The position numbers were made by a program, and so were the translations under genes. A DNA stretch of 64,000 nucleotides from Slackia sp. GTDB lineage: Bacteria > Actinomycetota > Coriobacteriia > Anaerosomatales > Anaerosomataceae. The notes beneath the pieces are model-generated. The model did no database searches. It saw only the letters and a program-made list of their open reading frames with translations, and was not told the origin of the DNA. Of the stretch, positions 43,249 through 56,969 are shown in pieces. The stretch covers positions 1 to 64,000 of the forward strand of contig DYEA01000009.1 in the NCBI GenBank assembly GCA_020725885.1. Reading direction: 5' to 3'. The first letter of the stretch is position 1; each line of letters opens with the position of its first letter.

Positions 43249-43839
43249 TCATCCCGCTCGGATGACCAGGTACGGGTTCATGCTCACGGGGTCGGAAAGC
43301 TCGCCGGGGTGGATGTCGCGCGCAAGGAAGCGCGCGAGCCCAGGCGCGTAGTAGCGGTTCCAGCACCAATAGAGGCCGGTCGCCTCGTCGTAGCGGTAGG
43401 AGGCGTAGCGGTAGGGGTTGGGCACGGACTCGTGCGCAGAAAGCGGATTCCCCCACGGGTCGTAGGAGTACGCGTTGACGACGGCGCCCGCAGAGTCGGT
43501 AAGCGCCACCACGTCGCCCCGGGCGTTCAGGCAGTAGAAGTACGTCTGTCCTCCCCTCGTCATCGCAAAGAGCCTACCAGACGGATCGTAGGCGTACGAG
43601 GCGAGGATCGCGCCTTCAGCGTCGGTCTCGGCGATCACGCGCGCGCTTAGCCCGTCGTAGCGGTAGAAGACGGTCGCGGTGCCCTCGGTCGCGGAGATTC
43701 TGCGGTTGAAGGCGTCGTAGGCGTAGGCGGCGATCGTCGCGCCTGTGGATGCGTCTGCCACCGAGACCAGGCGCCCTGCGGCGTCGTAGGCGAACCGGCG
43801 CTTGCCGTCGCAGGTGAGGTTGCCTGCCGCGTCGTACAC
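43249..43839 (-). pseudogene. Rhs/YD-repeat protein C-terminal remnant
   Basis: The 196-residue frame has YD repeats (YDAAGNL, YDAAGRLVSV, YDAFNRRIS, YDPSGRLFAM, YDPWGNPLS) and the core-end motif RYYAPGLARFLARDI. Full Rhs proteins are usually over 1000 aa and continue past this point into a variable toxic tip. Here there is neither the long N-terminal part (a stop TGA lies just upstream of the frame) nor a toxin domain; the protein ends 23 residues or so after RFLARD. A remnant of a deleted Rhs gene is the simplest reading. No immunity gene is recognisable. Confidence 0.75.
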
Positions 43840-44172: not shown

Positions 44173-45519
44173 CTACAAGTCGATGCCGTTGGTGACCCGC
44201 TTGTCCTCGGCGCGCTTGGCCATCTTGGTGAGGAACTCCATGTTCGACGAGGTCTGCTTCAAGCCCTTGATGAGCATCTCGAGCGCGCGCTCCGGCGAGT
44301 CCACACCGTGCAGGATGCGCCGCAGCCCCCACACGAACGGCGCCTCCATCGGATCGAGCAAGAGCTCCTCTTTGCGCGTGCCCGACGCGACCACGTCGAT
44401 CGCCGGGAAGATGCGGCGGTCGGCCATGTTCCGGTCGAGGCGGAGCTCCATGTTGCCGGTGCCCTTGAACTCCTCGAAGATGACCTCGTCCATCTTCGAG
44501 CCCGTGTCCACGAGCGCGGTGGCGAGGATCGTGAGCGAGCCGCCGTTCTCGATGTTGCGAGCCGCGCCGAAGAACCGCTTCGGCGGGTAGAGCGCCGTCG
44601 AGTCGACGCCGCCTGAAAGGATGCGGCCCGAGGCCGGCGTCGCGAGGTTGTACGCGCGCGCCAGGCGCGTGATCGAGTCGAGCAGGATGACGACGTCGTA
44701 GCCGCTTTCCACGAGCCGCTTTGCGCGCTCGAGCACCAACTCGGCCACGGCGATGTGGTTCTCGCTCGGCATGTCGAAGGTCGACGAGACGACCTCGCCG
44801 TGGATCGACCGCTCCATGTCGGTGACTTCCTCAGGCCGCTCGTCCACGAGCAGGCACATGAGGTACACCTCAGGGTTGTTCGCGGTGATCGCAGCGGCGA
44901 TGTCCTTGAGCACGGTCGTCTTGCCCGCCTTCGGCGGCGAGACGATCAGTCCGCGCTGGCCCTTGCCGATGGGCGCGACGAGGTCGATGACGCGCGCGGT
45001 GATGAACTGCGGCCCGTGCTCGAGACGCAGGCGCTGGTCGGGGTAGACCGGCGTCAAGTCGCGGAAGTCCTTGCGGCCCCTCGCCTCCTCGGCGTCGATG
45101 CCGTTGACGCGGTCGACCTTGATGAGCGCCGGGTACTTCTCCGACTCGCGCGGCGGCCGCACCTGGCCGTGCACCAGGTCGCCGCGGCGCAAGTCGTGCT
45201 TGCGGATGAGCGACATCGAGCAGTACACGTCCTTGTCGCCCGGCAAGTAGCCGCTCGTGCGCAAGAAGCCGTAGCCCTCAGGCAGGATGTCGAGGATGCC
45301 GTGCACCTCGACGAAGCCCTCGGCGCGCACCTTCGCCTCGTAGACGGCCTCGACGATCTCGTCCTTCTTCTTCAGCGCCTTGACGTCGAGCTCCAACTCG
45401 GCGGCCATCTGGCGGAGCTCCGCGACGGTCTTCGCGGCAAGCTCCTGGCGGGTGATGGACGGTGCGACTTCCTGCGGTGCGCCTCCGCGGCGCCCGCGCT
45501 TGCGGGGTCGTGCGCTCAT
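44173..45519 (-). CDS. rho: transcription termination factor Rho
   Basis: Hexameric RNA helicase that ends transcription. The 448-aa protein has a short basic N-terminus (RPRKRGRRGG), the Rho N-terminal helical domain (about 24-60), the cold-shock-like RNA-binding domain with GYGFLR (RNP1-like), and the RecA-like ATPase with PPKAGKTT (Walker A), LVDERPEEVTDM, LLDSITRLARAYN and the Q/R-loop region GGVDSTALYPPK. It is compact and lacks the long insert common in many actinobacteria. It starts in an ATGA overlap with tal and is the last large gene of the cDPG operon. Confidence 0.97.
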   Translation of the reverse strand: MSARPRKRGRRGGAPQEVAPSITRQELAAKTVAELRQMAAELELDVKALKKKDEIVEAVYEAKVRAEGFVEVHGILDILPEGYGFLRTSGYLPGDKDVYCSMSLIRKHDLRRGDLVHGQVRPPRESEKYPALIKVDRVNGIDAEEARGRKDFRDLTPVYPDQRLRLEHGPQFITARVIDLVAPIGKGQRGLIVSPPKAGKTTVLKDIAAAITANNPEVYLMCLLVDERPEEVTDMERSIHGEVVSSTFDMPSENHIAVAELVLERAKRLVESGYDVVILLDSITRLARAYNLATPASGRILSGGVDSTALYPPKRFFGAARNIENGGSLTILATALVDTGSKMDEVIFEEFKGTGNMELRLDRNMADRRIFPAIDVVASGTRKEELLLDPMEAPFVWGLRRILHGVDSPERALEMLIKGLKQTSSNMEFLTKMAKRAEDKRVTNGIDL

Positions 45520-46178
45520 GCGTTCTTCACTCTCTCCCAGTCGGCGAGGAAGGCCTCGAGGCCTCTGTCGGTCAGCGGATGCTTCACGAGTTTCTGCAGG
45601 ACGGCGAACGGCACCGTCGCGATGTCGGCGCCCATCAGCGCCGCGGCGACGACGTGCTGGTTGTGGCGGATCGAAGCGGCGATGACCTCGACGTCGTGCT
45701 CGAAGACGTAGTTGCGCAGCGCGGCCACGATGTTGCCGAGGTGCTCGAGGCCGTCTTCGGAGATGTCGTCGAAGCGGCCCACGAACGGCGAGACGTAGCG
45801 GGCGCCGGCGCGCGCCGCCATGAGCGCCTGCGGCACGGTAAAGCACAGCGTCATGTTCACCGCGATGCCGCGCTCAGCAAGCGTCTTGGTCGCGGCGAGC
45901 CCTTCGGGCATCACCGGCACCTTCACGACGACGTTCGGCGCGATGGCGGCCAGTTCCTCGCCCTCGCGCACGATGCCGTCGCGGTCAAGCGAGACCGTCT
46001 CAGCCGACACTGGGCCGTCGCAGATCTCGCAGATGCGCTTGATGTGCGCGTGGAAGTCGGAAAGCTTCCCGCCGATCTTCGCGTACAGCGTGGGGTTCGT
46101 GGTCACGCCGGCGAGCACGCCCCACGAAGCCGCTTCTTCGATCTCGCCGATGTCTGCCGTGTCCAGGAAGAACTTCAT
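45516..46178 (-). CDS. tal: transaldolase (small TalC/MipB-type)
   Basis: Pentose-phosphate enzyme, or a related fructose-6-phosphate aldolase, 220 aa. MKFFLDTADIGEIEEA and GVTTNPTLYAK are the family start; the Schiff-base Lys86 is in VVVKVPVM; ARYVSPFVGRFDD and ASIRHNQHV complete the barrel. TalC and FsaA cannot be separated safely by eye. It overlaps both 2-phosphoglycerate kinase upstream and rho downstream by ATGA. Confidence 0.93.
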   Translation of the reverse strand: MKFFLDTADIGEIEEAASWGVLAGVTTNPTLYAKIGGKLSDFHAHIKRICEICDGPVSAETVSLDRDGIVREGEELAAIAPNVVVKVPVMPEGLAATKTLAERGIAVNMTLCFTVPQALMAARAGARYVSPFVGRFDDISEDGLEHLGNIVAALRNYVFEHDVEVIAASIRHNQHVVAAALMGADIATVPFAVLQKLVKHPLTDRGLEAFLADWERVKNA

Positions 46179-47134
46179 GCCTCGTTCGCTCCTTCGTGCG
46201 ATTCGCCCGCTGCGCGGGGGCTTCCGTCCTCGTCGTGCCGTATCGCGGCGTTCACGACCAGCTCCAGCACCTCGGCCACCGTCCGGTCCAACTGGTGGCT
46301 GTGCACCACCGGCACCCCGTGCTCGACCGCCAGGTCCTCGATGTAGCGGCCGAGCAGCCGGATGTTGCCGAAGTTCGCCCGGTACTTCTCGAACGGCCGG
46401 GTGCCGTCCGTCTGTATCTCGCGGATGTAGAAGCGGCTCCTGTGCGCCTCTTCGTCGTCGACCGCGATGAGCAGCTGCACCACCACTGCGTTCGAGAACT
46501 GCGAAGGTTCGATGTACCCGGGGACGACGTGCACGCCTTCCACCACCAGGCTCTCGCCTTCGATGGTGGCGCGCTCGATGAGCGAGCGCACGCCGGTCAC
46601 GACGACGGCGGTCTGTTCCCGGAAGCCGACGATGACCGGATTCGCCCCGTGGGGCACAGGGACCCTGAGCCCGCGCCATGCGTTGAACGACGACTCGTAG
46701 ATCGCCGGCATGAGCTCGCGTGCAAAGATACCACGCATCACCTCGCGGATGGAATCCGTCGAGACGATGCGGGTAATGCCCAGCCGGTGCGCGATCTCGG
46801 TGGCGATCGTCGACTTGCCGACGCCGGTGGTGCCGCCGATCATGATGATGAGCGGCCGCTCGAGCTTCGAGAGCTCGATCAGCTTGACGTAGCGGTCCGC
46901 GTACTCGTCGCCGGCGTGCTGGCGCAAGATGCGCTCCGCCATCTGCTGGAGCTCTCGCAGCGTGATCTGCTTGATGCCGCGCTCGACGAGCTCGTCTTGG
47001 AGACGCTGCGCCGCGACGTAGGCGCGGGCAGGCGAAAGCCCCGTCGCGGTGAACGACTGCGTCATCAGCCCGCGGCTGTACGGCAGCCCGTGCTTCTCGT
47101 CCTTGATCAGGATCGGCGGGACCTGCGGCGCCAT
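46175..47134 (-). CDS. 2-phosphoglycerate kinase
   Basis: ATP-dependent kinase that makes 2,3-diphosphoglycerate from 2-phosphoglycerate, the first step toward cyclic 2,3-diphosphoglycerate. The 319-aa protein has an N-terminal ATP-cone-like segment (about 7-85, GLPYSRGLMTQSFTATGLSP), a P-loop GGTTGVGKST (100-109), STDSIREVMRG and GVHVVPGYIEP. This layout is known from methanogen enzymes. The downstream half is family-typical. Its start overlaps the stop of the synthetase gene (TGATG), so both pathway steps are coupled. The name rests on motif memory plus this pairing. Confidence 0.87.
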   Translation of the reverse strand: MAPQVPPILIKDEKHGLPYSRGLMTQSFTATGLSPARAYVAAQRLQDELVERGIKQITLRELQQMAERILRQHAGDEYADRYVKLIELSKLERPLIIMIGGTTGVGKSTIATEIAHRLGITRIVSTDSIREVMRGIFARELMPAIYESSFNAWRGLRVPVPHGANPVIVGFREQTAVVVTGVRSLIERATIEGESLVVEGVHVVPGYIEPSQFSNAVVVQLLIAVDDEEAHRSRFYIREIQTDGTRPFEKYRANFGNIRLLGRYIEDLAVEHGVPVVHSHQLDRTVAEVLELVVNAAIRHDEDGSPRAAGESHEGANEA

Positions 47135-48474
47135 CACGCACCAGCCTTCCCGCCGCGCGCGAGCGCGAGGGCGTGCGCCGCCTCGATGAGCCCATCGAGA
47201 TCGTCTCCCTCGACGGGCTGGGGCACGTTGTCGGCGAGCACGGTGCGGATGCCCAGCTCCTCGCCGAGCGCCGCCACGACGTCGATCGCGGCGGCTTTGA
47301 GCTCGGTCAGGAAGACGTCCGCCGTGCCCGCGGCCGCGGCGAGGTCCTCGCGGAGCCGCGCGCGGTTCGAGAGGTGCGGGCTTGCGGCCACGACGGTGCA
47401 GCCGTGCTCCGCTTCGAGATGGCGGACGAGGTGCTCGAGGAGCGCGGGCGGCGCGGTGGACGCGAACACCACGCGAGCGCCGTCGATCGGTTCGAGCGGC
47501 TTCGGGCGGAACACGGTGCGCACGACCGGCACGCCCGGTCGGATCCGCTCGATGGCCGCGACGAGCCCGCGCACCTCCTCGGGTGTCGCCACCGGCTCCT
47601 CGGCGCCGGCGATCACCACGCCGTCGGCGCGCGCCAGGCGGAACGGCCCGAAGTAGCCCTCGACGTAGCGGAGCCCTTGCCCTGCGCCGATCACGAGCAA
47701 CGTCGCGTCGGCCGCGACAGGCGGGATGGCCGCTCCAGAGCCCTCGAGGATCACCAGGTCCTTGCCGAGCGTGTCGGCGAGCCGAGCGCCTTCGGCGACG
47801 TTGCTGAAGAACGTCTCGCCGGCAAGGCCGCCGCCGCACCTTCGGCAACCCACAGTCGTCACGCGGCTCATCATCGCGTCCTCGTAGTTGTCCGAGGCCG
47901 CGTGCTTGCCCTGGCGCGCAAGCGCGAGCAGGTCAGCCGTGGTGAGCGCCACCTCGTCGCCGCGGATCAATTCGGGCGCGACCGGCCCTCCCCTGCCCAT
48001 CGCGACCACGACGACGTCCACGCCTCGGGCCTTCAGCCACCGCGCGACGTGCGCCGAGACCGCCGTCTTCCCGACCCGCTTGCCGGTGCCGATGATCGCG
48101 AGCGCGGGCGTCCTCAAGTCGAGCTTCGCGCGCGGCGGCGAGAAGACGAAGTCCGCGCCGCGGTACTCCACGCCGTGCGCGAGCGCGATAGAGGCGAGCC
48201 GGAACCGGTCGTCAGCGGTGAGGACCGGCTCGTCCGAGAGGTCGACGACCGCGTGCGGGCGGTATCGCTCGATAGCCGCCACGAGCGCCCGTTCGGCCGT
48301 CTCGCCGCGCACGACCGGGACGCCGTACACGTCGTCTTGACCGGCATCCACCTTCTCCGTGCCGCCGACGAACGCCGCCGTCACGATGTCGAACTCGGAG
48401 GCGAGGGCGGCGAGCGCCGAACGGACGACCGGCGGGTAGTGCTCGCCGTCGATGAGCGCCACCACGGTGCTCAC
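47134..48474 (-). CDS. cpgS: cyclic 2,3-diphosphoglycerate synthetase
   Basis: Closes 2,3-diphosphoglycerate to the cyclic form with ATP. The 446-aa protein has an N-terminal Rossmann-like half, a P-loop IIGTGKRVGKTA (about 128-138), a CRRCGGG Cys pair (about 209) and EGSGAAIPPV, matching methanogen cpgS as I remember it. In Methanothermus fervidus the product is a protein-stabilising solute. GTG start overlapping the phosphoesterase stop (GTGA). Both enzymes being adjacent strengthens the call. Confidence 0.87.
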   Translation of the reverse strand: MSTVVALIDGEHYPPVVRSALAALASEFDIVTAAFVGGTEKVDAGQDDVYGVPVVRGETAERALVAAIERYRPHAVVDLSDEPVLTADDRFRLASIALAHGVEYRGADFVFSPPRAKLDLRTPALAIIGTGKRVGKTAVSAHVARWLKARGVDVVVVAMGRGGPVAPELIRGDEVALTTADLLALARQGKHAASDNYEDAMMSRVTTVGCRRCGGGLAGETFFSNVAEGARLADTLGKDLVILEGSGAAIPPVAADATLLVIGAGQGLRYVEGYFGPFRLARADGVVIAGAEEPVATPEEVRGLVAAIERIRPGVPVVRTVFRPKPLEPIDGARVVFASTAPPALLEHLVRHLEAEHGCTVVAASPHLSNRARLREDLAAAAGTADVFLTELKAAAIDVVAALGEELGIRTVLADNVPQPVEGDDLDGLIEAAHALALARGGKAGA

Positions 48475-49274
48475 GAGGCGTCACCTCCGAGCACAGGCAC
48501 AGCCTCCCGCTTCGGCACATCCACGGTGCGCGTCGCCCGCGGGAAGTCAGCCACGACCTCCGGCGGGTCGAACGGCCGCTTCAAGACGACCTTCACGCGC
48601 TCCTCGTGGATCTCCACGATGTTGTAGCAGGCCTTGGCCTTGCCGCGCAGACGGTAGGTGCACGCAGTGCCGGCGTTGACGACCACCATCTGCTCGAGCC
48701 GCCACACGTTCGGCACGTGCTTGTGGCCGCACAGCACCATGTCGCAGCCGCAGTTCGTGAGGATGCGCAAGAGGTCGCCCGCGTCGTGCACGATGTTGCG
48801 CTCGCGTCCCGTGCCCGGCACCGGCAGCAGGTGGTGGTGCAGCGCCGCGATCTTGAACTCGTCCGGCTCAGAGAAGCGCTCCTCGATCCATCGGTACCGC
48901 TCGCGGCCGACGCGCCCGGTGTCCAGATCGGGCTCCGACGAGTCGAGCCCGAGGATGCGGATGCCGTCGAAGACGATCTCGTTCGAGCGCGCGCCGAACA
49001 GCTCCTCGAAGTGCATGTCGCCCACGTTGCGCGCGTCGTGGTTGCCCGGGAGCACCATCATGCGCGGCACGCGGATGCGCGACAGCAGCCGCTTGGCGGC
49101 CCGGAACTCCTGCCGGAACCCCATGTCCGTGAGGTCGCCCGTGACCACGACGGCGTCTGGCTCAAGCTCGTTGATCTCGTCGACGACGCGCGTGGCGAGG
49201 CTCGGTATGTGGTACTGCGAACCGAGGTGCAAGTCTGAGATCTGCACCACGATGCGGGGATAGCTGTCGCTCAC
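48471..49274 (-). CDS. calcineurin-like metallophosphoesterase
   Basis: A 267-aa cytosolic phosphoesterase with all binuclear-metal motifs: ISDLHLG (residues about 12-18), GDLTD, PGNHD, HHHLLP and CGHKHVPN. It is of the Icc/CpdA-like group, often cyclic phosphodiesterases. The GTG at 49274 has GGAGG 4 nt upstream; the ATG at 49292 has none. It is the first gene of the five-gene overlapping operon that makes cyclic 2,3-diphosphoglycerate, so a role in hydrolysing or recycling that compound is an attractive but untested guess. Confidence 0.9.
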   Translation of the reverse strand: MSDSYPRIVVQISDLHLGSQYHIPSLATRVVDEINELEPDAVVVTGDLTDMGFRQEFRAAKRLLSRIRVPRMMVLPGNHDARNVGDMHFEELFGARSNEIVFDGIRILGLDSSEPDLDTGRVGRERYRWIEERFSEPDEFKIAALHHHLLPVPGTGRERNIVHDAGDLLRILTNCGCDMVLCGHKHVPNVWRLEQMVVVNAGTACTYRLRGKAKACYNIVEIHEERVKVVLKRPFDPPEVVADFPRATRTVDVPKREAVPVLGGDAS

Positions 49275-49381: not shown

Positions 49382-50179
49382 TCAGTCCGGGTCGCTGGCT
49401 TCCCCGGCAGCCGTCTCGGAGCGGTCGCGGAGGAGCATCGCTTCGCGCAGCGCCGCAAGCACGACGCCAAGCGCCAGCCCGAGGATCGCTGCCGTCGCCG
49501 CAGATGCTCCCCGCCTGCGCGCCGGCGCGATGTCGTCGGTCGCGACGTTGCCGTTGTAGTAGTACGTCGAGCGCATCTGCCGGAGCGCGAGCTTGTCCTC
49601 GTACAGCTTCATGCGCATCTGCCACTGCGTCGCGACGATGTCGAGAGACAGCTGCGCGTCCCGCCGCCCAGAGGTCTGGTTGTCGATGCGCCGCACCGCG
49701 GTGAGGCTCTTCTCCGTGTCTTCGATCCGCTGTTCGAGCGCACGGATCTCGGCGCCGCCCATCTCCACCGCGCGCTCGACGAGCGCCCGCGCCATCGCGG
49801 TGACCACGCCCGCGGCTTGGCTCTCGTCGCGGGACTGGAAGCGCACGACGAGCCGGGACTGCGGATCGTCGAGCGTGTAGACGGACAGGCTTGCGCGCAA
49901 CGCTTCTGTCGTGGCGCCAGAGGCTTCGACGACCCGCGCTACGACGCCGTCCTTCTCGGCCTCCTGCATCATGTGATCGGGGCGCGGCAGGTCGGGGTAC
50001 TTCTGCAGGAACGACGCGTCGATGGCGATGACGGCCCGGGCCTCGAACAGCGGCTTGCCAGGCCGGCTCGCGAACGCGAGCGCTGCTGTCACTGCGAGCG
50101 CGGCGACCACGACGGGGACCCACCACTCCCGCCTCACGATGGCGTCCCAAGAGCGCGGCTCAGATCGCACTCGCCTCAC
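49382..50179 (-). CDS. Wzz-like polysaccharide chain-length/export protein
   Basis: A 265-aa protein with a membrane helix near each end (about residues 22-40 and 227-246) and a long extracytoplasmic region with coiled-coil parts (about 130-190, GAEIRALEQRIEDTEKSL). This topology and the Pro/Gly content near the second helix resemble Wzz/KpsE-like proteins. A short cytosolic tail follows; there is no tyrosine-kinase domain. GTG at 50179, 20 bp inside the end of the upstream ligase gene. Confidence 0.7.
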   Translation of the reverse strand: MRRVRSEPRSWDAIVRREWWVPVVVAALAVTAALAFASRPGKPLFEARAVIAIDASFLQKYPDLPRPDHMMQEAEKDGVVARVVEASGATTEALRASLSVYTLDDPQSRLVVRFQSRDESQAAGVVTAMARALVERAVEMGGAEIRALEQRIEDTEKSLTAVRRIDNQTSGRRDAQLSLDIVATQWQMRMKLYEDKLALRQMRSTYYYNGNVATDDIAPARRRGASAATAAILGLALGVVLAALREAMLLRDRSETAAGEASDPD

Positions 50180-51551
50180 CAAGCTCCATACACTCGCGAC
50201 CGCACGAAGCAGCGAAGAGGCCTGCGAAGATCCACAGGTACTCGAAGTACAGATAGTACTGGAACAGCGACTCGACGACGAGCACGAGCGCGCCGGCGGC
50301 AGCGGCCGCGGCGATCGGAGGCCAGCCCGCGCGGGCCGCGCGTCTGGCAGCGAGCGCCCCGGCAGCGGCGGCCGCGATCAGCGCGATCGCGCCGAGGACG
50401 CCCGTCTCCGCCACGAACGACAGCGGAACCTGGTGCGGATGCGTGATGCGAGGAAGCGCGCCGGGCAGCCGGTACTCGGGGTAGACCGCGTCGTGCGCGC
50501 CGAGCCCGATGCCGGCAGGAGCGCGATCCACGAACATGCGCAGGTCCGAGACGGCCATGAGGTAGCGGGTCGAGAGCGACGTCGCGGACGCGGGGCGCAG
50601 CAGCTGCGCCATCCGACCCCACACACCGCTCGGCACGAAGGGCGCCGACGCGACGACGAGCGCCACGAGCGCTGCCGCGATGGCAGCGCGCCGCTTCTTC
50701 GGCGCGGTCACGATGACGAACGCAGCTCCGGCTGCAAGCCCGACAAGCGCCGACCGCGAGGAGGTCACGACCACGCCGGCAGCGCATGCCATGCCGCCTG
50801 CGAGCCACGGCACGGCGTCACCAAGCCGCTTGGAGTGCACGGACAGCGCCGCGGCGGACACCGCAGCCGCAGAGAGGTAGCCGCCAAGGAAGTTCGGGTC
50901 GCGGAAGAACGCGGCCGGACGCACGACCTCTTCGAAGGCGCTCAGTCCTTGCACGGCCGCCCGCCCGATCTCGAGCTCCGGGACCAGCAGCTGCACGACT
51001 GCGACGCCGCTCATCGCGGCGCCCACGGCGACGAGCGCGCCGAGGATCGCCTTGGCGCGGCGAACGTCCGACGCCAGAGCCGCCACGACGGCCGCGATCG
51101 CCACCATCAGCGCGAGCCGCGCGCTCGCACCGAAGGCCGCGGCAGCATCAGGAGCGGCCGCAGCCGACACGAGCCCTGCTGCCGGCAGACCGGCGAGGGC
51201 TGCGAGCAGGGGCGCGGCAGAACGAGGGATGCCTGTCCCAGCGGCCGGCATGCGCACGATCCATCCGGCCAGCAGACCTGCGAGGGCGGCGTGCGCCGCG
51301 GTGAGCGGGACGCCAGGCGGCCCGACTGAAAGCGCGTCGAAGAACGGCAGCACGCACAGCCACGCCACGAGACCGCCGAACGGCCACGCGATCCCGAGCG
51401 CGAACAGCGCCAGCCCCGCAAGACCGGCCGTCGCCGCGGCGTACGGCTCCCACTGCGCTCCCGCCACGGCCGCCCAGCCGGCGAGAGCGGACGAAGCGAG
51501 CAGCGCGGCGGCGAACGCCCCGTTCCGCGTATGCGCGCTCCAGTCGGTCAC
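50160..51551 (-). CDS. O-antigen ligase/polymerase-like membrane protein
   Basis: A 463-aa polytopic protein with roughly 11-12 hydrophobic helices rich in Ala. The middle has the PAAFFRDPNFLGGYL and SSRSALVGL segments and a large loop with GIGLGAHDAVYPEY and HPHQVPL, typical of the Wzy/WaaL (O-antigen ligase) superfamily. It is paired with the Wzz-like gene (overlap) and no other sugar genes, so the polymer acted on is unknown. GTG start, 12 bp after thrB in transcription order. Confidence 0.82.
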   Translation of the reverse strand: MTDWSAHTRNGAFAAALLASSALAGWAAVAGAQWEPYAAATAGLAGLALFALGIAWPFGGLVAWLCVLPFFDALSVGPPGVPLTAAHAALAGLLAGWIVRMPAAGTGIPRSAAPLLAALAGLPAAGLVSAAAAPDAAAAFGASARLALMVAIAAVVAALASDVRRAKAILGALVAVGAAMSGVAVVQLLVPELEIGRAAVQGLSAFEEVVRPAAFFRDPNFLGGYLSAAAVSAAALSVHSKRLGDAVPWLAGGMACAAGVVVTSSRSALVGLAAGAAFVIVTAPKKRRAAIAAALVALVVASAPFVPSGVWGRMAQLLRPASATSLSTRYLMAVSDLRMFVDRAPAGIGLGAHDAVYPEYRLPGALPRITHPHQVPLSFVAETGVLGAIALIAAAAAGALAARRAARAGWPPIAAAAAAGALVLVVESLFQYYLYFEYLWIFAGLFAASCGRECMELGEASAI

Positions 51552-51563
51552 TTCGTCGCCCTC

Positions 51564-52484
51564 TCAGGCGACGCGCTCGACGACCGCTCCTCGGCGGTCG
51601 ACGGGCGCCACCAGCGCAGTCCTGCCGGAAGGCAGCGAGACCGCCCGGGCGGCCGCCTCGGCCCGCTCGAGCGCCTCGGCGTCGTCGTCACCGGTGAACA
51701 GCCCGAGCACCGTCGGGCCGGCTCCCGAGAGGACCGCGGCGGTCGCGCCAGCATCGAGCAACGCGCAGCGGGCCTGCTCGATGTCCGGCACGAGCGGCGC
51801 CCGGTAGGGTTCGTGGAGGTAGTCTCGCGCACCAGCCGCGATGAGCCCGTCCCGGCCCGTCACGATGCCGAGCGCGAACAGCGCCGCACGCGCCGCGTTC
51901 GCCGCGGCGTCGGCGTGCGGCACGGAATCGGGCAACGCCTGACGCGAGACCGCCGTCGGCAGCTCACGCTCGCTGATCGCGGCGACGACCGCGACGCCGC
52001 AGCCAGGCTCGAAACGCTCGACGGCCCACGCATCGCCCTCGCGGCGAGCCACCACGAAACCGCCGAGCAGCGCCGCGGCTGCATTGTCGGCATGGCCTTC
52101 GCCCTCGACGGCACGACGCACGATCTCCTCGCGCGACATGCCGCAACCGCACAGCGCATCGGCCAGCAGGACGCCGCCGACGATCGCAGCCGCTGACGAG
52201 CCGAGCCCCTTGCCGACCGGCACCCGGTTCTCGCAGCGGATGCGGAGCGCCCCGGCGAAGCCTGCTTCCTCGAACACGCGCCTCGCCGCCGCTGCCACCA
52301 GGTTTGTCGCGTCAGACGCAAGCCGGCCGACGCCTTCGCCTGCGACCTCGACGGACCACTCGTCGGCGACCTCGGCCTCGAAGACGTCCGCGACATCCAG
52401 CGCGAGCGCGAAGGAGTCGAACCCCGCGCCGAGGTTGGCCGAGGTCGCAGGGACCCGGACGACCGCTCGCCGTGGCAACGTCAC
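51564..52484 (-). CDS. thrB: homoserine kinase
   Basis: GHMP-family kinase that phosphorylates homoserine for threonine synthesis. The 306-aa protein has VPATSANLGAGFDSF at the start, the ATP motif PVGKGLGSSAAA (about residue 85) and SGAGPTVLG near the C-terminus. GTG start overlaps the hom stop (GTGA). No thrC occurs in the window. Confidence 0.96.
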   Translation of the reverse strand: MTLPRRAVVRVPATSANLGAGFDSFALALDVADVFEAEVADEWSVEVAGEGVGRLASDATNLVAAAARRVFEEAGFAGALRIRCENRVPVGKGLGSSAAAIVGGVLLADALCGCGMSREEIVRRAVEGEGHADNAAAALLGGFVVARREGDAWAVERFEPGCGVAVVAAISERELPTAVSRQALPDSVPHADAAANAARAALFALGIVTGRDGLIAAGARDYLHEPYRAPLVPDIEQARCALLDAGATAAVLSGAGPTVLGLFTGDDDAEALERAEAAARAVSLPSGRTALVAPVDRRGAVVERVA

Positions 52485-53770
52485 AAGCTCTCCACCCGGA
52501 TCATGTTCGCTACCGCGCGCACCTTCTCGAGAGCGCCGATGTCGTCCAGCGCGGCCTTGACCGCGCGCTCGGAAGCCTCGTGCGTGAGCCACACGATCTC
52601 AGCGACGCCGTCGCTCACGGAACGCTTCTGGATGACCGAGGCGAGCGACACGCCGTGGGCGCCGAACACCGCGGCGACCGACGCGAGCACGCCCGGCTCG
52701 TCGAGCACGTGGAGGCGCACGTAGTAGCCGGTGACGAGCTCGCCCATCTCGCGTACCGGCAGGTCCTCGGAGCACGTGCAGCCGACGAGCGCGACACAGC
52801 CCGTCTGCATGTGGCGCGCCACCTCGATCACGTCCCCGACGACCGCGGACGCCGCCGGAAGCGAGCCCGCCCCCTCGCCGAAGAACATCGTCTCGCCCAC
52901 CGAGTCGCCCACGACGTAGATCGCGTTGTAGACGCCGGAGACCTTCGCGAGCGGGTGGTCGGCGCGGATCATCGCGGGATGCACGCGCACGTCGATGCCG
53001 CGCTCCGTTCGCCGCGCCACGGCGAGCAGCTTGATCGCGTAGCCCATCTCGGCGGCGTACGCGATGTCGACCGGCTCGATGGCGCGGATGCCTTCGACCG
53101 GGACTTGCGAGAAGGTGACGCGCGAGTTGAACGCGATCGACGCGAGGATCGCGATCTTCGCAGCGGCATCGAGGCCGTCCACGTCGGCCGTCGGGTCGGC
53201 CTCCGCGTATCCGCGCTCCTGCGCTTCAGCGAGCGCGGTGGCGTAGTCGAGGCCGTCTTCGGCCATGCGCGTGAGGATGAAGTTGGTCGTGCCGTTCACG
53301 ATGCCGTACACGGCCTGGATCTCGTTGCTCACGAGCGAGCGCTTGAGCGGCAAGATGATGGGGATGCCGCCGCCGACGGCAGCCTCGAACATGATGTCGA
53401 CGCCAGCCTGCTCGGCCGCGTCCATGACCTCCTGGCCGTGCGTAGCCATGAGCGCCTTGTTCGCGGTGACGACGCTCTTGCCGGCGCGAAGCGCTGCGAG
53501 CACGACCTCGCGCGCGGCGCCCGTGCCGCCGATGAGCTCGATGACGACGTCGAGGGTGGGGTCGGCGACGAGCTCGGCAGCGTCTGTCGTGCACGCCTCG
53601 GGCGGCAGGCCGAGCTGCGCGAAGCGCTCAGGGTTGCGATCGGCGAAGCGCGCGAGCTCGACGTCGACGCCCGCCCGTTTCGCGAAGTCGCCCCGGTGGC
53701 GCCGGAAAATCTCGACGACGCCGCTGCCGACGGTGCCCAGGCCGACCAGGCCGACGCGGATGGTGCGCAT
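52481..53770 (-). CDS. hom: homoserine dehydrogenase
   Basis: Reduces aspartate semialdehyde to homoserine. The 429-aa protein has the NAD(P) motif GLGTVGSG (residues 10-17), the GTTNFILTRM region, KIAILASIAF with the catalytic Lys, and a C-terminal ACT domain (about 345-425), usually the threonine-feedback site. Followed by overlapping thrB. Confidence 0.97.
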   Translation of the reverse strand: MRTIRVGLVGLGTVGSGVVEIFRRHRGDFAKRAGVDVELARFADRNPERFAQLGLPPEACTTDAAELVADPTLDVVIELIGGTGAAREVVLAALRAGKSVVTANKALMATHGQEVMDAAEQAGVDIMFEAAVGGGIPIILPLKRSLVSNEIQAVYGIVNGTTNFILTRMAEDGLDYATALAEAQERGYAEADPTADVDGLDAAAKIAILASIAFNSRVTFSQVPVEGIRAIEPVDIAYAAEMGYAIKLLAVARRTERGIDVRVHPAMIRADHPLAKVSGVYNAIYVVGDSVGETMFFGEGAGSLPAASAVVGDVIEVARHMQTGCVALVGCTCSEDLPVREMGELVTGYYVRLHVLDEPGVLASVAAVFGAHGVSLASVIQKRSVSDGVAEIVWLTHEASERAVKAALDDIGALEKVRAVANMIRVESL

Positions 53771-53893
53771 GGGTGCCTCCTGGTGTGATGGTGTCTCGCC
53801 GGTATTGTACCGGAGCGCATCGGCGCTCCCCCACCGGAAGCCGGCGTCGCGAAGGGCGCAGCCCGGTCGCCGCGCACCGGCGCCGTTCCTGCC

Positions 53894-55258
53894 TCAGCCG
53901 AGGTCGGTCGCCATGAGGTCGTCGTACGTCTCGCGGCGCACCGACCAGCGCCAGGAGCCGTCGTTCACGAACACGATGCCGGGTCGCACCTGCTTGTTGT
54001 AGTTGCTCGACATCGAGTAGCAGTACGCGCCGGTCGCGCACACGCACACGACGTCGCCGACCTCCGGCTCCTGCAGCGGCGCGTCGCGAACCACCACGTC
54101 GCCGCTCTCGCAGTGCTTGCCGGCGATCGTCACCACCACCGTGCGCGGCTCGCTCGCCTTGTTCGCGATGAGCGCCTCGTAGTGGGCGTCATACAGCGAG
54201 GTGCGGATGTTGTCGCTCATCCCGCCGTCGACGGCCACGTAGGTGCGGATGCCGGGGATCTCCTTGATTGCTCCCACGGTATAGAGCGTCACGCCGGCGT
54301 TGGCGACGATGCTCCGCCCCGGCTCGACGGCCATGCGCGGCACCGGCAGACCGTGCTTCTCGCACTCCTCCTTGATGCCGTCGACGACGACCTTGCCGAA
54401 GTCCTTGATCGACGAGGGCTCGTCCGGCACGCCGTACTTGACGCCGAGGCCGCCGCCCACGTCGAGCATGCGCACGTCCACGCCCGTGCGGTCGCGGATC
54501 TCGCGCATGAACGCGACCATGACCTCGATGGCCTTCGCGAAGCTCTTGAGCGCGAAGATCTGGCTGCCGATGTGCATGTGCAGCCCCTCGAAGTCGACGC
54601 CCGGCAGCGCGATCGCGCGCTCGACCGCCTCCATCGCGAGCCCTTGGTTCAGCCCGAAGCCGAACTTCGAGTCCTCCGCGCCCGTCATGATGAAGTCGTG
54701 CGTGTCGGCGGCGATGCCCGGCGTCACGCGGATGAGGACCTTCTGCGAGACGCCGCGCTCGGCGGCCAGCCGCGACAGCCGGTCCAACTCGACGAAGTTG
54801 TCGACGACGATGCGCCCGACGCCGGCCTCCACGCACTCTGCGAGCTCCTGGGGCGTCTTGTTGTTGCCGTGCACCTGCACGCGCTCCATGGGAAAGCCCG
54901 CGCGCAGCGCGTAGGCGAGCTCGCCACCGGAGGCGCACAGCAGGCAGCAGTCCTCTTCCTCGACGATGCGCACCATCGCGAGCGTCAAAAACGCCTTGCC
55001 TGCGTACACCACGTCCACCTCGGGCCAGTGGTAGCGCGTCCAGCGGACGTACTCGCGCAATCGGTGGCGGATGGTCGCCTCGTCCATGACGTAGAGCGCC
55101 GTGCCCGCCTCGCGCGCCAGTTCCACGACGTCGACGCCGCCGATCCACAGATGGCCGTCGCGGACCTCCGCCGTCATCGGCAGCACCGCGGCCAGGTCGG
55201 CAGCGGTGCGCAGGTCGGGCGTTGCGGGCGGGCGGGGCGTCGATGGGCGGGCTGCCAT
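53894..55258 (-). CDS. lysA: diaminopimelate decarboxylase
   Basis: PLP enzyme that makes lysine from meso-diaminopimelate. The 454-aa protein has the cofactor Lys in VVYAGKAF (about residue 88), HMHIGSQI, GGGLGVKYG, EPGRSIVANAG and the active-site Cys in KHCESGD. It starts at ATG, 10 bp after argS, ahead of hom-thrB by 123 bp; the aspartate-family genes are grouped. Confidence 0.97.
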   Translation of the reverse strand: MAARPSTPRPPATPDLRTAADLAAVLPMTAEVRDGHLWIGGVDVVELAREAGTALYVMDEATIRHRLREYVRWTRYHWPEVDVVYAGKAFLTLAMVRIVEEEDCCLLCASGGELAYALRAGFPMERVQVHGNNKTPQELAECVEAGVGRIVVDNFVELDRLSRLAAERGVSQKVLIRVTPGIAADTHDFIMTGAEDSKFGFGLNQGLAMEAVERAIALPGVDFEGLHMHIGSQIFALKSFAKAIEVMVAFMREIRDRTGVDVRMLDVGGGLGVKYGVPDEPSSIKDFGKVVVDGIKEECEKHGLPVPRMAVEPGRSIVANAGVTLYTVGAIKEIPGIRTYVAVDGGMSDNIRTSLYDAHYEALIANKASEPRTVVVTIAGKHCESGDVVVRDAPLQEPEVGDVVCVCATGAYCYSMSSNYNKQVRPGIVFVNDGSWRWSVRRETYDDLMATDLG

Positions 55259-55268
55259 GGCTGCTCCT

Positions 55269-56969
55269 TCACATCCGCACGGGCGCGCTCACGCCGAGCA
55301 GACGGAGCGCCGCCGCGATCACGAGACGGGTTGCGTCGCACAGCGCGAGCCGTGCCGCGGTGAGCGCAGGCTCGTCAGGATCGATGACGCGGCAGACGGT
55401 GTAGAACTGGTGGAACGCGGTCGCCAGATCCTCGGCGTACCGCGTCAGACGGTGCGGCGCACGCTGCTCGGCAGCGGCAGCCGCCACATCCGGGAACTCA
55501 GCGATCTTCCGCACGAGCGCGAGCTCGGCGTCCTCGGCGAGCAGCGAAAGGTCGGTGTCCTCAGGGACGAGCCGGGCGGCGAGCGCGTCGACGTCGTCCG
55601 AGTCGGAGTCCGCCGCCTTGCGCAGGATCGAGCAGATGCGGGCGTGCGCGTACTGGACGTAGAAGACCGGGTTCTCGTTCGTCTGCTGCTTGGCAAGGCC
55701 GATGTCGAAGTCGAGCGACTGGTCAGTGGAGCGCCTCAAGAAGAAGTAGCGCACCGCGTCCGCGCCGACCTCGTCGAGCAGCTCCTCGAAGGTCACCATC
55801 TCGCCGGTGCGCTTGCTCATCCGCACGACCTCGCCGTTGCGGAACAGGTTCACCATCTGGCCGATGATGACCTCGAGCTGCCCCGGGAAACCGAGTGCGG
55901 CCACAGCCGCCTCCATGCGCTTGACGTAGCCGTGGTGGTCGGCGCCCCACAGGTCGATGACGCGGTCGAAACCGCGCACGCCGAACTTGTCCCAGTGGTA
56001 CGCGACATCGGCCGCGAAGTACGTGTACGAGCCGTCGGCCTTGACGAGCACGCGGTCCTTGTCGTCGCCGAACGCGGTCGAGCGGAACCACACGGCGCCC
56101 TCGTGCTCGTAGACGTGGCCCGCCTCGCGCAGGCGCGCGATCGCGCGCTCGATCTCGCTCGGGCCGCCGTCGGGGCCAGGCGCGTGCAGCGTGCGCTCGG
56201 AGAACCAGACGTCGAAGTCCACCCCGAAGGCGTGCAAGACGCGCTTCAGGTGCTCGAGCACCTGCTGGTAGGCCTTCTCCTTGAAGTGCGCCTCGCGCTC
56301 GTCCGCGGGCCGGTCGGCCCACGCGTCGCCTTCCTCGTCGAAGATCTCGCGCGCGATGTCGGTGATGTACGCGCCGCGGTAGCCGTCCTCCGGGAACTCG
56401 ACGTCGCGGCCGCACAGTTCCATATAGCGGGCAGAGACGCTCGCGGCGAAGATGTCCATCTGGACGCCCGCGTCGTTGACGTAGAACTCGCGCTCGACCG
56501 TGTAGCCCGCATGCTCGAGCAGCCGGGCGATGCTGTCCCCGAGCGCCGCCCAACGGCCGTGCCCGACGTGCATCGGCCCGACGGGGTTGGCCGAGACGAA
56601 CTCCACCTGGATGCGCTCGCCCAGCGGCGGCTTCGCGCCGTAGCGCTCGCGCGCGCGGCGGACCCGCGCGACCTCCCGCTGGAAGACCGCAGGCGCGAGG
56701 CGCACGTTGATGAATCCGGGGCCAGCGACTTCCACGGAGGCGATGTCGGGATGCTCGGCCACGCGGCGCGCGATGATCTCCGCGAGGTCGCGCGGCTTCA
56801 TGCCGGCAGAGCGTGCCGACTTCAGCGCGACGTTTGTCGCCCAGTCGCCGTGCGAGGGGTCCCGCGGCCGCTCGACCTCGACGACCGGCGCTTCCGAGAA
56901 CGCGGCCTCGCCCGCTTCGATCGCTTCGTTGATGGCTTGCGCGAGCAGCTGCTCGACGACGTCACGCAC
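55269..56969 (-). CDS. argS: arginyl-tRNA synthetase
   Basis: Class I synthetase, 566 aa. N-terminal Add-1 domain, the signature SANPVGPMHVGHGRW (about residue 120; HVGH), a MSKRTGEMVTFEELL loop in place of KMSKS, and the DALR anticodon-binding C-terminus ending LLGVSAPVRM. GTG start. The argS-lysA-hom-thrB order is common in high-GC Gram-positives. Confidence 0.97.
   Translation of the reverse strand: MRDVVEQLLAQAINEAIEAGEAAFSEAPVVEVERPRDPSHGDWATNVALKSARSAGMKPRDLAEIIARRVAEHPDIASVEVAGPGFINVRLAPAVFQREVARVRRARERYGAKPPLGERIQVEFVSANPVGPMHVGHGRWAALGDSIARLLEHAGYTVEREFYVNDAGVQMDIFAASVSARYMELCGRDVEFPEDGYRGAYITDIAREIFDEEGDAWADRPADEREAHFKEKAYQQVLEHLKRVLHAFGVDFDVWFSERTLHAPGPDGGPSEIERAIARLREAGHVYEHEGAVWFRSTAFGDDKDRVLVKADGSYTYFAADVAYHWDKFGVRGFDRVIDLWGADHHGYVKRMEAAVAALGFPGQLEVIIGQMVNLFRNGEVVRMSKRTGEMVTFEELLDEVGADAVRYFFLRRSTDQSLDFDIGLAKQQTNENPVFYVQYAHARICSILRKAADSDSDDVDALAARLVPEDTDLSLLAEDAELALVRKIAEFPDVAAAAAEQRAPHRLTRYAEDLATAFHQFYTVCRVIDPDEPALTAARLALCDATRLVIAAALRLLGVSAPVRM

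What the first reader, a model, noticed from the sequence alone, without database searches (positions are those of the whole stretch)
44173..49274. Five-gene overlapping operon pairing cyclic 2,3-diphosphoglycerate synthesis with transaldolase and rho in a bacterium
The order phosphoesterase, cDPG synthetase, 2-phosphoglycerate kinase, transaldolase, rho is joined by four consecutive stop/start overlaps (48471, 47134, 46175, 45516). Cyclic 2,3-diphosphoglycerate is known as a thermoadaptation solute and phosphate/energy store of some methanogens; both synthetic enzymes in a high-GC bacterium, coupled to a putative cyclic phosphodiesterase and rho, suggest a regulated pool of this compound. The phosphoesterase is a candidate for the missing hydrolase. 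Function as a system is inference.
Basis: partly seen in the sequence, partly recalled or inferred. Interest (0 to 1): 0.75.

Follow-up and report, generated by a model that had tools for sequence, protein, structure and literature searches.

The report
Bacterial cyclic diphosphoglycerate gene module
A little-known actinobacterium and many distant relatives carry side by side genes that look fit to make cyclic 2,3-diphosphoglycerate, a compound known from methane-making archaea, together with a phosphoesterase that may be the unidentified enzyme that breaks it down again.

Summary
The five genes and four overlaps are real. The synthetase is 47% identical to the solved Methanothermus fervidus enzyme, with its substrate and Mg residues intact. 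The kinase is 2-phosphoglycerate-kinase-like, below NCBI's equivalog cut-offs. The first gene is a GpdQ/Rv0805-type metallophosphoesterase with an unusual set of invariant arginines. The full order phosphoesterase-synthetase-kinase-transaldolase-rho recurs in 20 of 30 further Actinomycetota families examined. Of 396 sampled genomes, 199 have the synthetase; 194 of these also have a 2PGK homologue and 192 a phosphoesterase of this family (some only a paralogue). In three families of the window's order one genome each lacks the first three genes together while transaldolase-rho stays; in another family the three sit away from rho. So the unit is three genes. Transaldolase and rho are old neighbours in an argS-lysA-hom-thr-rho-rpmE-prfA cluster. 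Best reading: a bacterial cDPG module, two synthetic enzymes plus a candidate cDPG hydrolase, feeding a mobilisable phosphate/carbon/energy store rather than a purely thermal protectant. No product or activity was measured. My searches of the held open-licence papers found none on native bacterial cDPG.

The parts
48471..49274 (-). Metallophosphoesterase (MPE), 267 aa, GpdQ/Rv0805-like; candidate cDPG hydrolase; core part
   Evidence: Pfam Metallophos 66 bits; model pLDDT 88.8, nearest folds GpdQ Z 27.8 and Rv0805 Z 27.5; metal ligands conserved, R124 R157 R159 R210 42 of 42
47134..48474 (-). Cyclic 2,3-diphosphoglycerate synthetase, 446 aa; core part
   Evidence: PDB 8oru E 8e-121 over residues 4-423; E40 K41 K132 R133 T137 D195 E391 match the ligand residues of the M. 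fervidus enzyme
46175..47134 (-). 2-phosphoglycerate-kinase-like kinase with N-terminal ATP cone, 319 aa; core part
   Evidence: NCBIfam PRK12337 310 bits, PRK04220 304 bits, both below cut-off; ATP-cone 25.9 bits; P-loop GGTTGVGKST in the translation
45516..46178 (-). FSA/TalC-type transaldolase; positional neighbour, not part of the unit
   Evidence: TIGR00875 268 bits, cut-off 246; stays with rho when the triplet is lost
44173..45519 (-). Transcription terminator Rho; positional neighbour, not part of the unit
   Evidence: TIGR00767 643 bits, cut-off 509; in many relatives it precedes rpmE-DUF1385-prfA-prmC
51564..56954 (-). Upstream cluster: GHMP kinase (thrB-like), homoserine dehydrogenase, lysA-like decarboxylase, argS: the frame of the rho region

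Best explanation
The first three genes form a cDPG module. The kinase makes 2,3-bisphosphoglycerate from 2-phosphoglycerate and ATP. The synthetase closes it with a second ATP into cyclic 2,3-diphosphoglycerate. The metallophosphoesterase opens or dephosphorylates the product so that phosphate and carbon return to gluconeogenesis. The pool most likely serves as a mobilisable phosphate/carbon/anhydride store and counter-ion, with protein protection as a bonus in warm-living members. Transaldolase and rho are old neighbours, not partners. Shown: sequences, conserved ligand residues, gene order, co-occurrence, joint loss. Inferred: the reactions, the hydrolase role, the physiology.
For: Synthetase: 47% identical to the M. 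fervidus enzyme; E45, K46 (62 of 63) and K145, R146, T150, D208, E404 (63 of 63) kept in the bacterial sequences aligned, window included (residues from PMC10690619 passages). Co-occurrence in 396 Actinomycetota: synthetase 199, with 2PGK homologue 194, with MPE family 192, all three 187. Window's order: synthetase in 65 of 69; linked-type MPE (over 300 bits) in 59 of those 65. Three cassette-less genomes (G059, G087, G129) have no strong kinase match (G087 one marginal, E 3e-4) and no MPE at E <= 1e-20, and show sppA-transaldolase-rho with the triplet gone on a continuous contig; a rho tree places each with cassette-bearing members of its own family (supports 0.88, 0.69, 0.99), so three separate joint losses. 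Family f29 (one genome) keeps the triplet away from rho. Where family f36 lacks the linked kinase, an unlinked one exists in 4 of 4 genomes searched, and the one scanned passes NCBI's 2PGK cut-off (387 against 343 bits). MPE: R124, R157, R159, R210 in 42 of 42 and R82, K185, R208 in 41 of 42; at the five of these seven that the alignment covers, GpdQ has D, Q, D (for R124, R157, R159), K (R82) and N (K185), which suits a highly charged substrate. Own genome shows no cofactor-dependent mutase (TIGR01258), and cultured relatives use the independent one (PMC9686372, passages), so 2,3-BPG is not needed as mutase cofactor.
Against: No metabolite or activity was measured. The kinase misses NCBI's curated 2PGK cut-offs. 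MPE is not always present: families f26, f27, f8 and f15 have the synthetase without adjacent MPE (L016 and L018 taken as f15 and L025 as f8 by matching contig positions), and 7 of 199 genomes lack any MPE at E <= 1e-30. The 192 include f26 genomes, of which the two I inspected have only a ~45% paralogue. All six distinct paralogues that I read carry TGRER and an RxRG motif, four of them in genomes where no synthetase was found (G051, G358, G509, G579). The hydrolase activity described in M. thermautotrophicus is membrane-bound (PMC1224877, passages). The module is patchy: 197 of 396 genomes lack a strong synthetase, as do all 227 sampled genomes of the class outside the order. Co-occurrence counts are not phylogenetically independent.
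Confidence: 0.6

Rival explanations
1. cDPG is made, but the phosphoesterase acts elsewhere in the route or on another substrate: as a 2,3-bisphosphoglycerate phosphatase, a glycerophosphodiesterase or a cyclic-nucleotide phosphodiesterase.
For: Nearest folds are GpdQ and Rv0805. The paralogue with a similar pocket exists in genomes without a detected synthetase. Some synthetase-bearing families have no linked MPE.
Against: Linkage to the synthetase in 28 of 30 families outside the order and joint loss in three families; basic residues that GpdQ lacks at four of five compared positions.
Confidence: 0.3
2. The module sets a low-level signal or regulator (2,3-BPG or cDPG) rather than a bulk store or solute.
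For: Spread through an order whose cultured members differ in temperature optimum; a dedicated phosphoesterase would suit turnover.
Against: No receptor or effector gene among the conserved neighbours that I annotated; in methanogens the pool reaches 0.3-1.1 M (PMC10690619, passages).
Confidence: 0.15
3. One reading: one five-gene system tying cDPG to transaldolase and Rho.
For: Four overlaps in the window; the full order is kept in 20 of 30 families outside the order; transaldolase draws on the same sugar-phosphate metabolism.
Against: Transaldolase-rho stays when the triplet is lost; the triplet exists without both; rho sits in a wider conserved cluster.
Confidence: 0.06
4. The synthetase and kinase homologues do something other than make cDPG.
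For: I saw no assay of a bacterial enzyme of the pair in the listings and passages seen; the kinase is below the equivalog cut-offs.
Against: The 2,3-DPG, Mg and most nucleotide residues are conserved; near-constant pairing of the two enzymes; an unlinked kinase over the 2PGK cut-off where the linked one is missing.
Confidence: 0.08

Closest known systems
cDPG biosynthesis of Methanothermus fervidus and relatives (2PGK + cDPG synthetase)
   Same: Same two enzyme families; synthetase 47% identical with the same ligand residues
   Different: Bacterial; genes adjacent and joined by a phosphoesterase; kinase below the 2PGK equivalog cut-offs; in an order with a cultured mesophile. Archaeal gene neighbourhoods could not be compared here.
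GpdQ / Rv0805 (class III cyclic-nucleotide-type metallophosphoesterases)
   Same: Fold (Z 27.8 / 27.5) and metal-ligand pattern
   Different: About 20-26% identity; extra invariant Arg/Lys/His, including GTGRER and an R-x-R-G motif
Actinobacterial argS-lysA-hom-thrC-thrB-rho-rpmE-prfA-prmC region (name of the arrangement recalled)
   Same: The genomic frame in which the module sits
   Different: Module plus transaldolase lie between thrB/sppA and rho

Membership tests
Cyclic 2,3-diphosphoglycerate synthetase | Full-length two-domain similarity to the characterised enzyme | tested here: met
   Residues 4-423 of 446 align to 8oru, E 8e-121
Cyclic 2,3-diphosphoglycerate synthetase | 2,3-DPG and Mg ligands E45, K46, K145, R146, T150, D208; nucleotide residues E305, T353, E404 | tested here: met
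   All present in the window protein
Cyclic 2,3-diphosphoglycerate synthetase | Nucleotide residue P335 of the paper | tested here: inconclusive
   Position 335 is F in both the M. fervidus chain and the window protein under my numbering
Cyclic 2,3-diphosphoglycerate synthetase | ATP-dependent ring closure of 2,3-BPG | not testable with these tools
   Needs an assay
2-phosphoglycerate kinase (NCBIfam PRK04220 / PRK12337) | Score over the curated equivalog cut-off | tested here: not met
   304.4 of 343 and 310.2 of 603 bits; so called 2PGK-like, not filed as that equivalog
2-phosphoglycerate kinase (NCBIfam PRK04220 / PRK12337) | Full-length match with ATP cone and P-loop kinase domain, better than to sister kinases | tested here: met
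   8-301 on 6-296 of 306; mevalonate-3-phosphate 5-kinase model only 89 bits
Class III metallophosphoesterase (GpdQ/Rv0805) | Metallophos fold with D-x-H, GD, GNH, H, GHxH ligands | tested here: met
   (D14 in 41 of 42, the rest 42 of 42)
cDPG hydrolase | Hydrolysis of cDPG | not testable with these tools
   Needs an assay; no sequence of the methanogen hydrolase was found in the passages read

The most novel reading that the evidence does not exclude
Actinomycetota ancestrally possess a complete cDPG cycle, synthesis plus a dedicated hydrolase whose archaeal gene I found named nowhere in the passages read. cDPG would then be an old bacterial phosphate/energy store rather than a methanogen heat protectant.
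Probability: 0.45. Interest if true: 0.78.

Novelty: new variant of a known kind. Interest (0 to 1): 0.62.

Why it matters
A 2023 paper states that cDPG is found only in hyperthermophilic methanogens (PMC10690619, abstract and passages); a 2005 review adds Methanobrevibacter smithii (PMC1224877, passages). Here 194 of 396 sampled Actinomycetota genomes carry homologues of both synthetic genes, and the ligand residues are intact in nearly all of the 63 synthetases aligned. This makes two open questions testable with cultured bacteria: what cDPG is for, and which gene encodes its hydrolase.

Tried and rejected
Rho/transaldolase coupling: rejected as above. Cofactor supply for dPGM: rejected (TIGR01258 absent in the own genome; iPGAM in relatives). 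Plasmid spread: no match to the synthetase among 72,556 plasmid records. MPE signature as proof of cDPG specificity: rejected, because all six distinct paralogues that I read share TGRER and an RxRG motif, four of them in genomes without a detected synthetase (my regular expressions there were stricter than the motif, so I went by the printed sequences). Joint loss in G051, G358 and G579: not used, because rho itself was not found there, so the region may be unassembled. Recent transfer from methanogens: only two non-actinobacterial sequences were at hand (8oru and 9sxb, whose organism I do not know); they pair together (0.94) and under midpoint rooting attach beside five of the bacterial families (f74, f29, f69, f55, f39). 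This settles neither the direction nor the number of transfers. Distance correlations between the five gene trees were all positive (r 0.47-0.84, 0 of 999 permutations as high), consistent with shared descent but not proof. Paper searches for bacterial cDPG found none that I could see from titles and abstract starts; they cover only the open-licence PubMed Central library. One paper made cDPG in Thermus with transplanted archaeal genes (PMC12136491, passage).
Full report
WHAT IS THERE. The five frames, their coordinates and the four overlaps are as described. Proteins in transcription order: a metallophosphoesterase (Pfam Metallophos 6e-18); a cDPG synthetase (8oru E 8e-121, 9sxb E 2.4e-107); a 2PGK-like kinase (310 and 304 bits to the two NCBIfam 2PGK models, both under their cut-offs); an FSA/TalC-type transaldolase and Rho (both over cut-off). 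The window lies in a 1.83-Mb genome. Its nearest named relatives among the loci are EMTCatB1 (L003) and isolate SKW301 (L004), both at 87% in the synthetase; EMTCatB1 comes from a 55 C biocathode (PMC7943316, passages). The order is Anaerosomatales/OPB41, judged from the titles of its relatives; the temperature preference of the window's own organism is not known to me.

SYNTHETASE. The residues that the crystal paper names for 2,3-DPG, Mg and nucleotide (PMC10690619, passages) were mapped through an alignment of 63 bacterial proteins, window included, with the M. fervidus chain. E45 and K46 are kept in 62 of 63 (one gap); K145, R146, T150, D208 and E404 in 63 of 63; E305 in 60; T353 in 62. 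The paper's P335 did not fall on a proline under my numbering in either protein. Identity of the window protein to M. fervidus is 46.7%; the bacterial members range from 38 to 52%.

KINASE. It matches the PRK04220 2PGK model end to end, including the ATP cone, and scores far lower against the mevalonate-3-phosphate 5-kinase model. All 55 linked kinases long enough to show it have a GKS P-loop (seven of them read from the printed sequence). In family f36 the linked kinase is missing. I take f36 to be Rubrobacteraceae because one contig length, 3,225,748, equals that of R. xylanophilus DSM 9941 as I recall it. In L072 a glpX-type fructose-1,6-bisphosphatase stands between synthetase and rho, and the other five f36 loci hold a frame of similar size there. 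An unlinked kinase with 35-38% identity to the window's was found in 4 of 4 f36 genomes searched for it, and the one scanned passes the NCBIfam 2PGK cut-off (387 of 343 bits). Two f36 genomes with the synthetase (G570, G578) gave no kinase match.

PHOSPHOESTERASE. The AlphaFold model has pLDDT 88.8, pTM 0.87. The closest solved folds are GpdQ (3d03, Z 27.8, 2.0 A over 225) and Rv0805 (3ib7, Z 27.5, 2.4 A over 232). The metal ligands are conserved in 41-42 of 42 linked homologues. Beyond them R124, H148, R157, R159 and R210 are invariant, and R82, K185 and R208 are in 41 of 42; at the positions of R82, R124, H148, R157, R159 and K185 GpdQ has K, D, P, Q, D and N. cDPG carries a net charge of -3 (PMC1224877, passages), so such a pocket fits, but this is inference. 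A ~45% paralogue family shares the TGRER and RxRG pattern.

SPREAD. Class search: synthetase in 65 of 69 genomes of the window's order at E <= 9e-99, and only two marginal partial matches among 227 other genomes of the class. Phylum search: 202 of 396 at E <= 0.001, of which 199 have E <= 3e-11 after dropping three marginal ones (G080, G317, G534). 2PGK homologue at E < 1e-10: 199; both: 194; synthetase only: 5; kinase only: 5. MPE family at E <= 1e-30: 197; with synthetase 192; synthetase without it 7; MPE without synthetase 5; all three 187. These are counts of related genomes, not independent events, and the MPE count includes paralogues.

NEIGHBOURHOOD. Of the 40 chosen regions 39 lie outside the order, in 30 families. 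The linked MPE is present in 28 of the 30 (not f26, f27), the linked kinase in 28 (not f36; f89 ends at the contig) and all five genes in order in 20. Upstream lie members of argS-lysA-hom-thrC-thrB-sppA and downstream rpmE-DUF1385-prfA-prmC-tsaC in those that I annotated, a frame that I recognise from memory as common in actinobacteria. In the window a Wzz-like frame and a Wzy_C ligase stand where sppA stands in many relatives.

WHAT BELONGS TOGETHER. Three cassette-less genomes of the order (G129 f14, G087 f2, G059 f4) have sppA followed by transaldolase and rho, with nothing matching MPE, synthetase or kinase between. The spaces between the matched stretches are 344, 239 and 575 bases; that of G087 holds no open frame of 60 aa, the other two only short ones (83 aa; 111 and 129 aa). 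In a rho tree each sits with cassette-bearing members of its own family (supports 0.99, 0.69, 0.88). One f1 sequence (L148) is misplaced in that tree, at low support, so it is not faultless. I read this as three joint losses that spare transaldolase and rho. One f29 genome has the triplet at one place and rho-rpmE-DUF1385-prfA at another; in one f65 genome (single contig) the triplet is present and no rho was found at E <= 1e-60. The MPE is the looser member: within the order a linked-type MPE (over 300 bits) is in 59 of 65 synthetase-bearing genomes; three more (G081, G135, G143) have only the paralogue and three (G091, G119, G147) none (several of these are incomplete). That cassettes without a linked MPE often keep the paralogue (f8, f15 in part, the two f26 genomes inspected) may mean that it takes over; f27 (G297) has neither.

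MECHANISM. 2-PG + ATP to 2,3-BPG (kinase); 2,3-BPG + ATP to cDPG (synthetase); cDPG back towards phosphoglycerate by the phosphoesterase. A hydrolase activity is described in M. thermautotrophicus as membrane-bound, and the review discusses a carbon and phosphate store (PMC1224877, passages). The two cultured members of the order are a mesophile and a thermophile, lack phosphofructokinase, have fructose-1,6-bisphosphatase and use the 2,3-BPG-independent mutase (PMC9686372, passages). This fits a side branch of gluconeogenesis and speaks against a mutase-cofactor role; the own genome shows no TIGR01258 match. A store is therefore my preferred physiology, with protein protection possible in the warm members. 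It is inference.

NOVELTY. The 12 held papers with 'diphosphoglycerate synthetase' are listed; none shows native bacterial cDPG in its title or the abstract start printed. Term pairs with Coriobacteriia and Rubrobacter gave none and variant spellings nothing relevant. One 2005 paper notes COG2074 (2PGK) in Thermus and Deinococcus (PMC1274311, passage), and a paper on ammonia-oxidising archaea infers the synthetase in their thermophilic ancestors (PMC7554672, passages). Database annotations of bacterial proteins under this name may well exist; I could not check them.

VERDICT. Real, old and widespread, though patchy, in Actinomycetota; a new bacterial variant of a known archaeal route with a plausible candidate for the missing hydrolase; the rho and transaldolase links are positional.

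Noticed in passing
window 43249-43839: An RHS-repeat frame lies just downstream of rho, and no rpmE, DUF1385 or prfA match was found in the window, although these follow rho in many relatives.
   Followed up: partly
window 49382-51551: A Wzz-like frame (by eye; no Pfam match) and a Wzy_C O-antigen ligase sit between the thrB-like gene and the module, where relatives often have an S49 peptidase.
   Followed up: partly
L103-L106 (family f36): The unlinked 2PGK has P-loop GATGVGTST in 4 of 4, with T in place of the usual Walker A lysine, yet the one scanned passes the NCBI 2PGK cut-off.
   Followed up: partly
G456 (L083, single contig), G358, G579, G051: No Rho was found at E <= 1e-60 in these genomes, listed as 97-98% complete.
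   Followed up: no
L026 8001-8345: Weak, partial (31%, residues 6-114) match to the synthetase N-terminal part in a Rhizobiales contig.
   Followed up: no
L110-L115, L128, L129: A second, ~45% identical phosphoesterase family with the same TGRER motif and unknown role, with or without the synthetase in the genome.
   Followed up: partly
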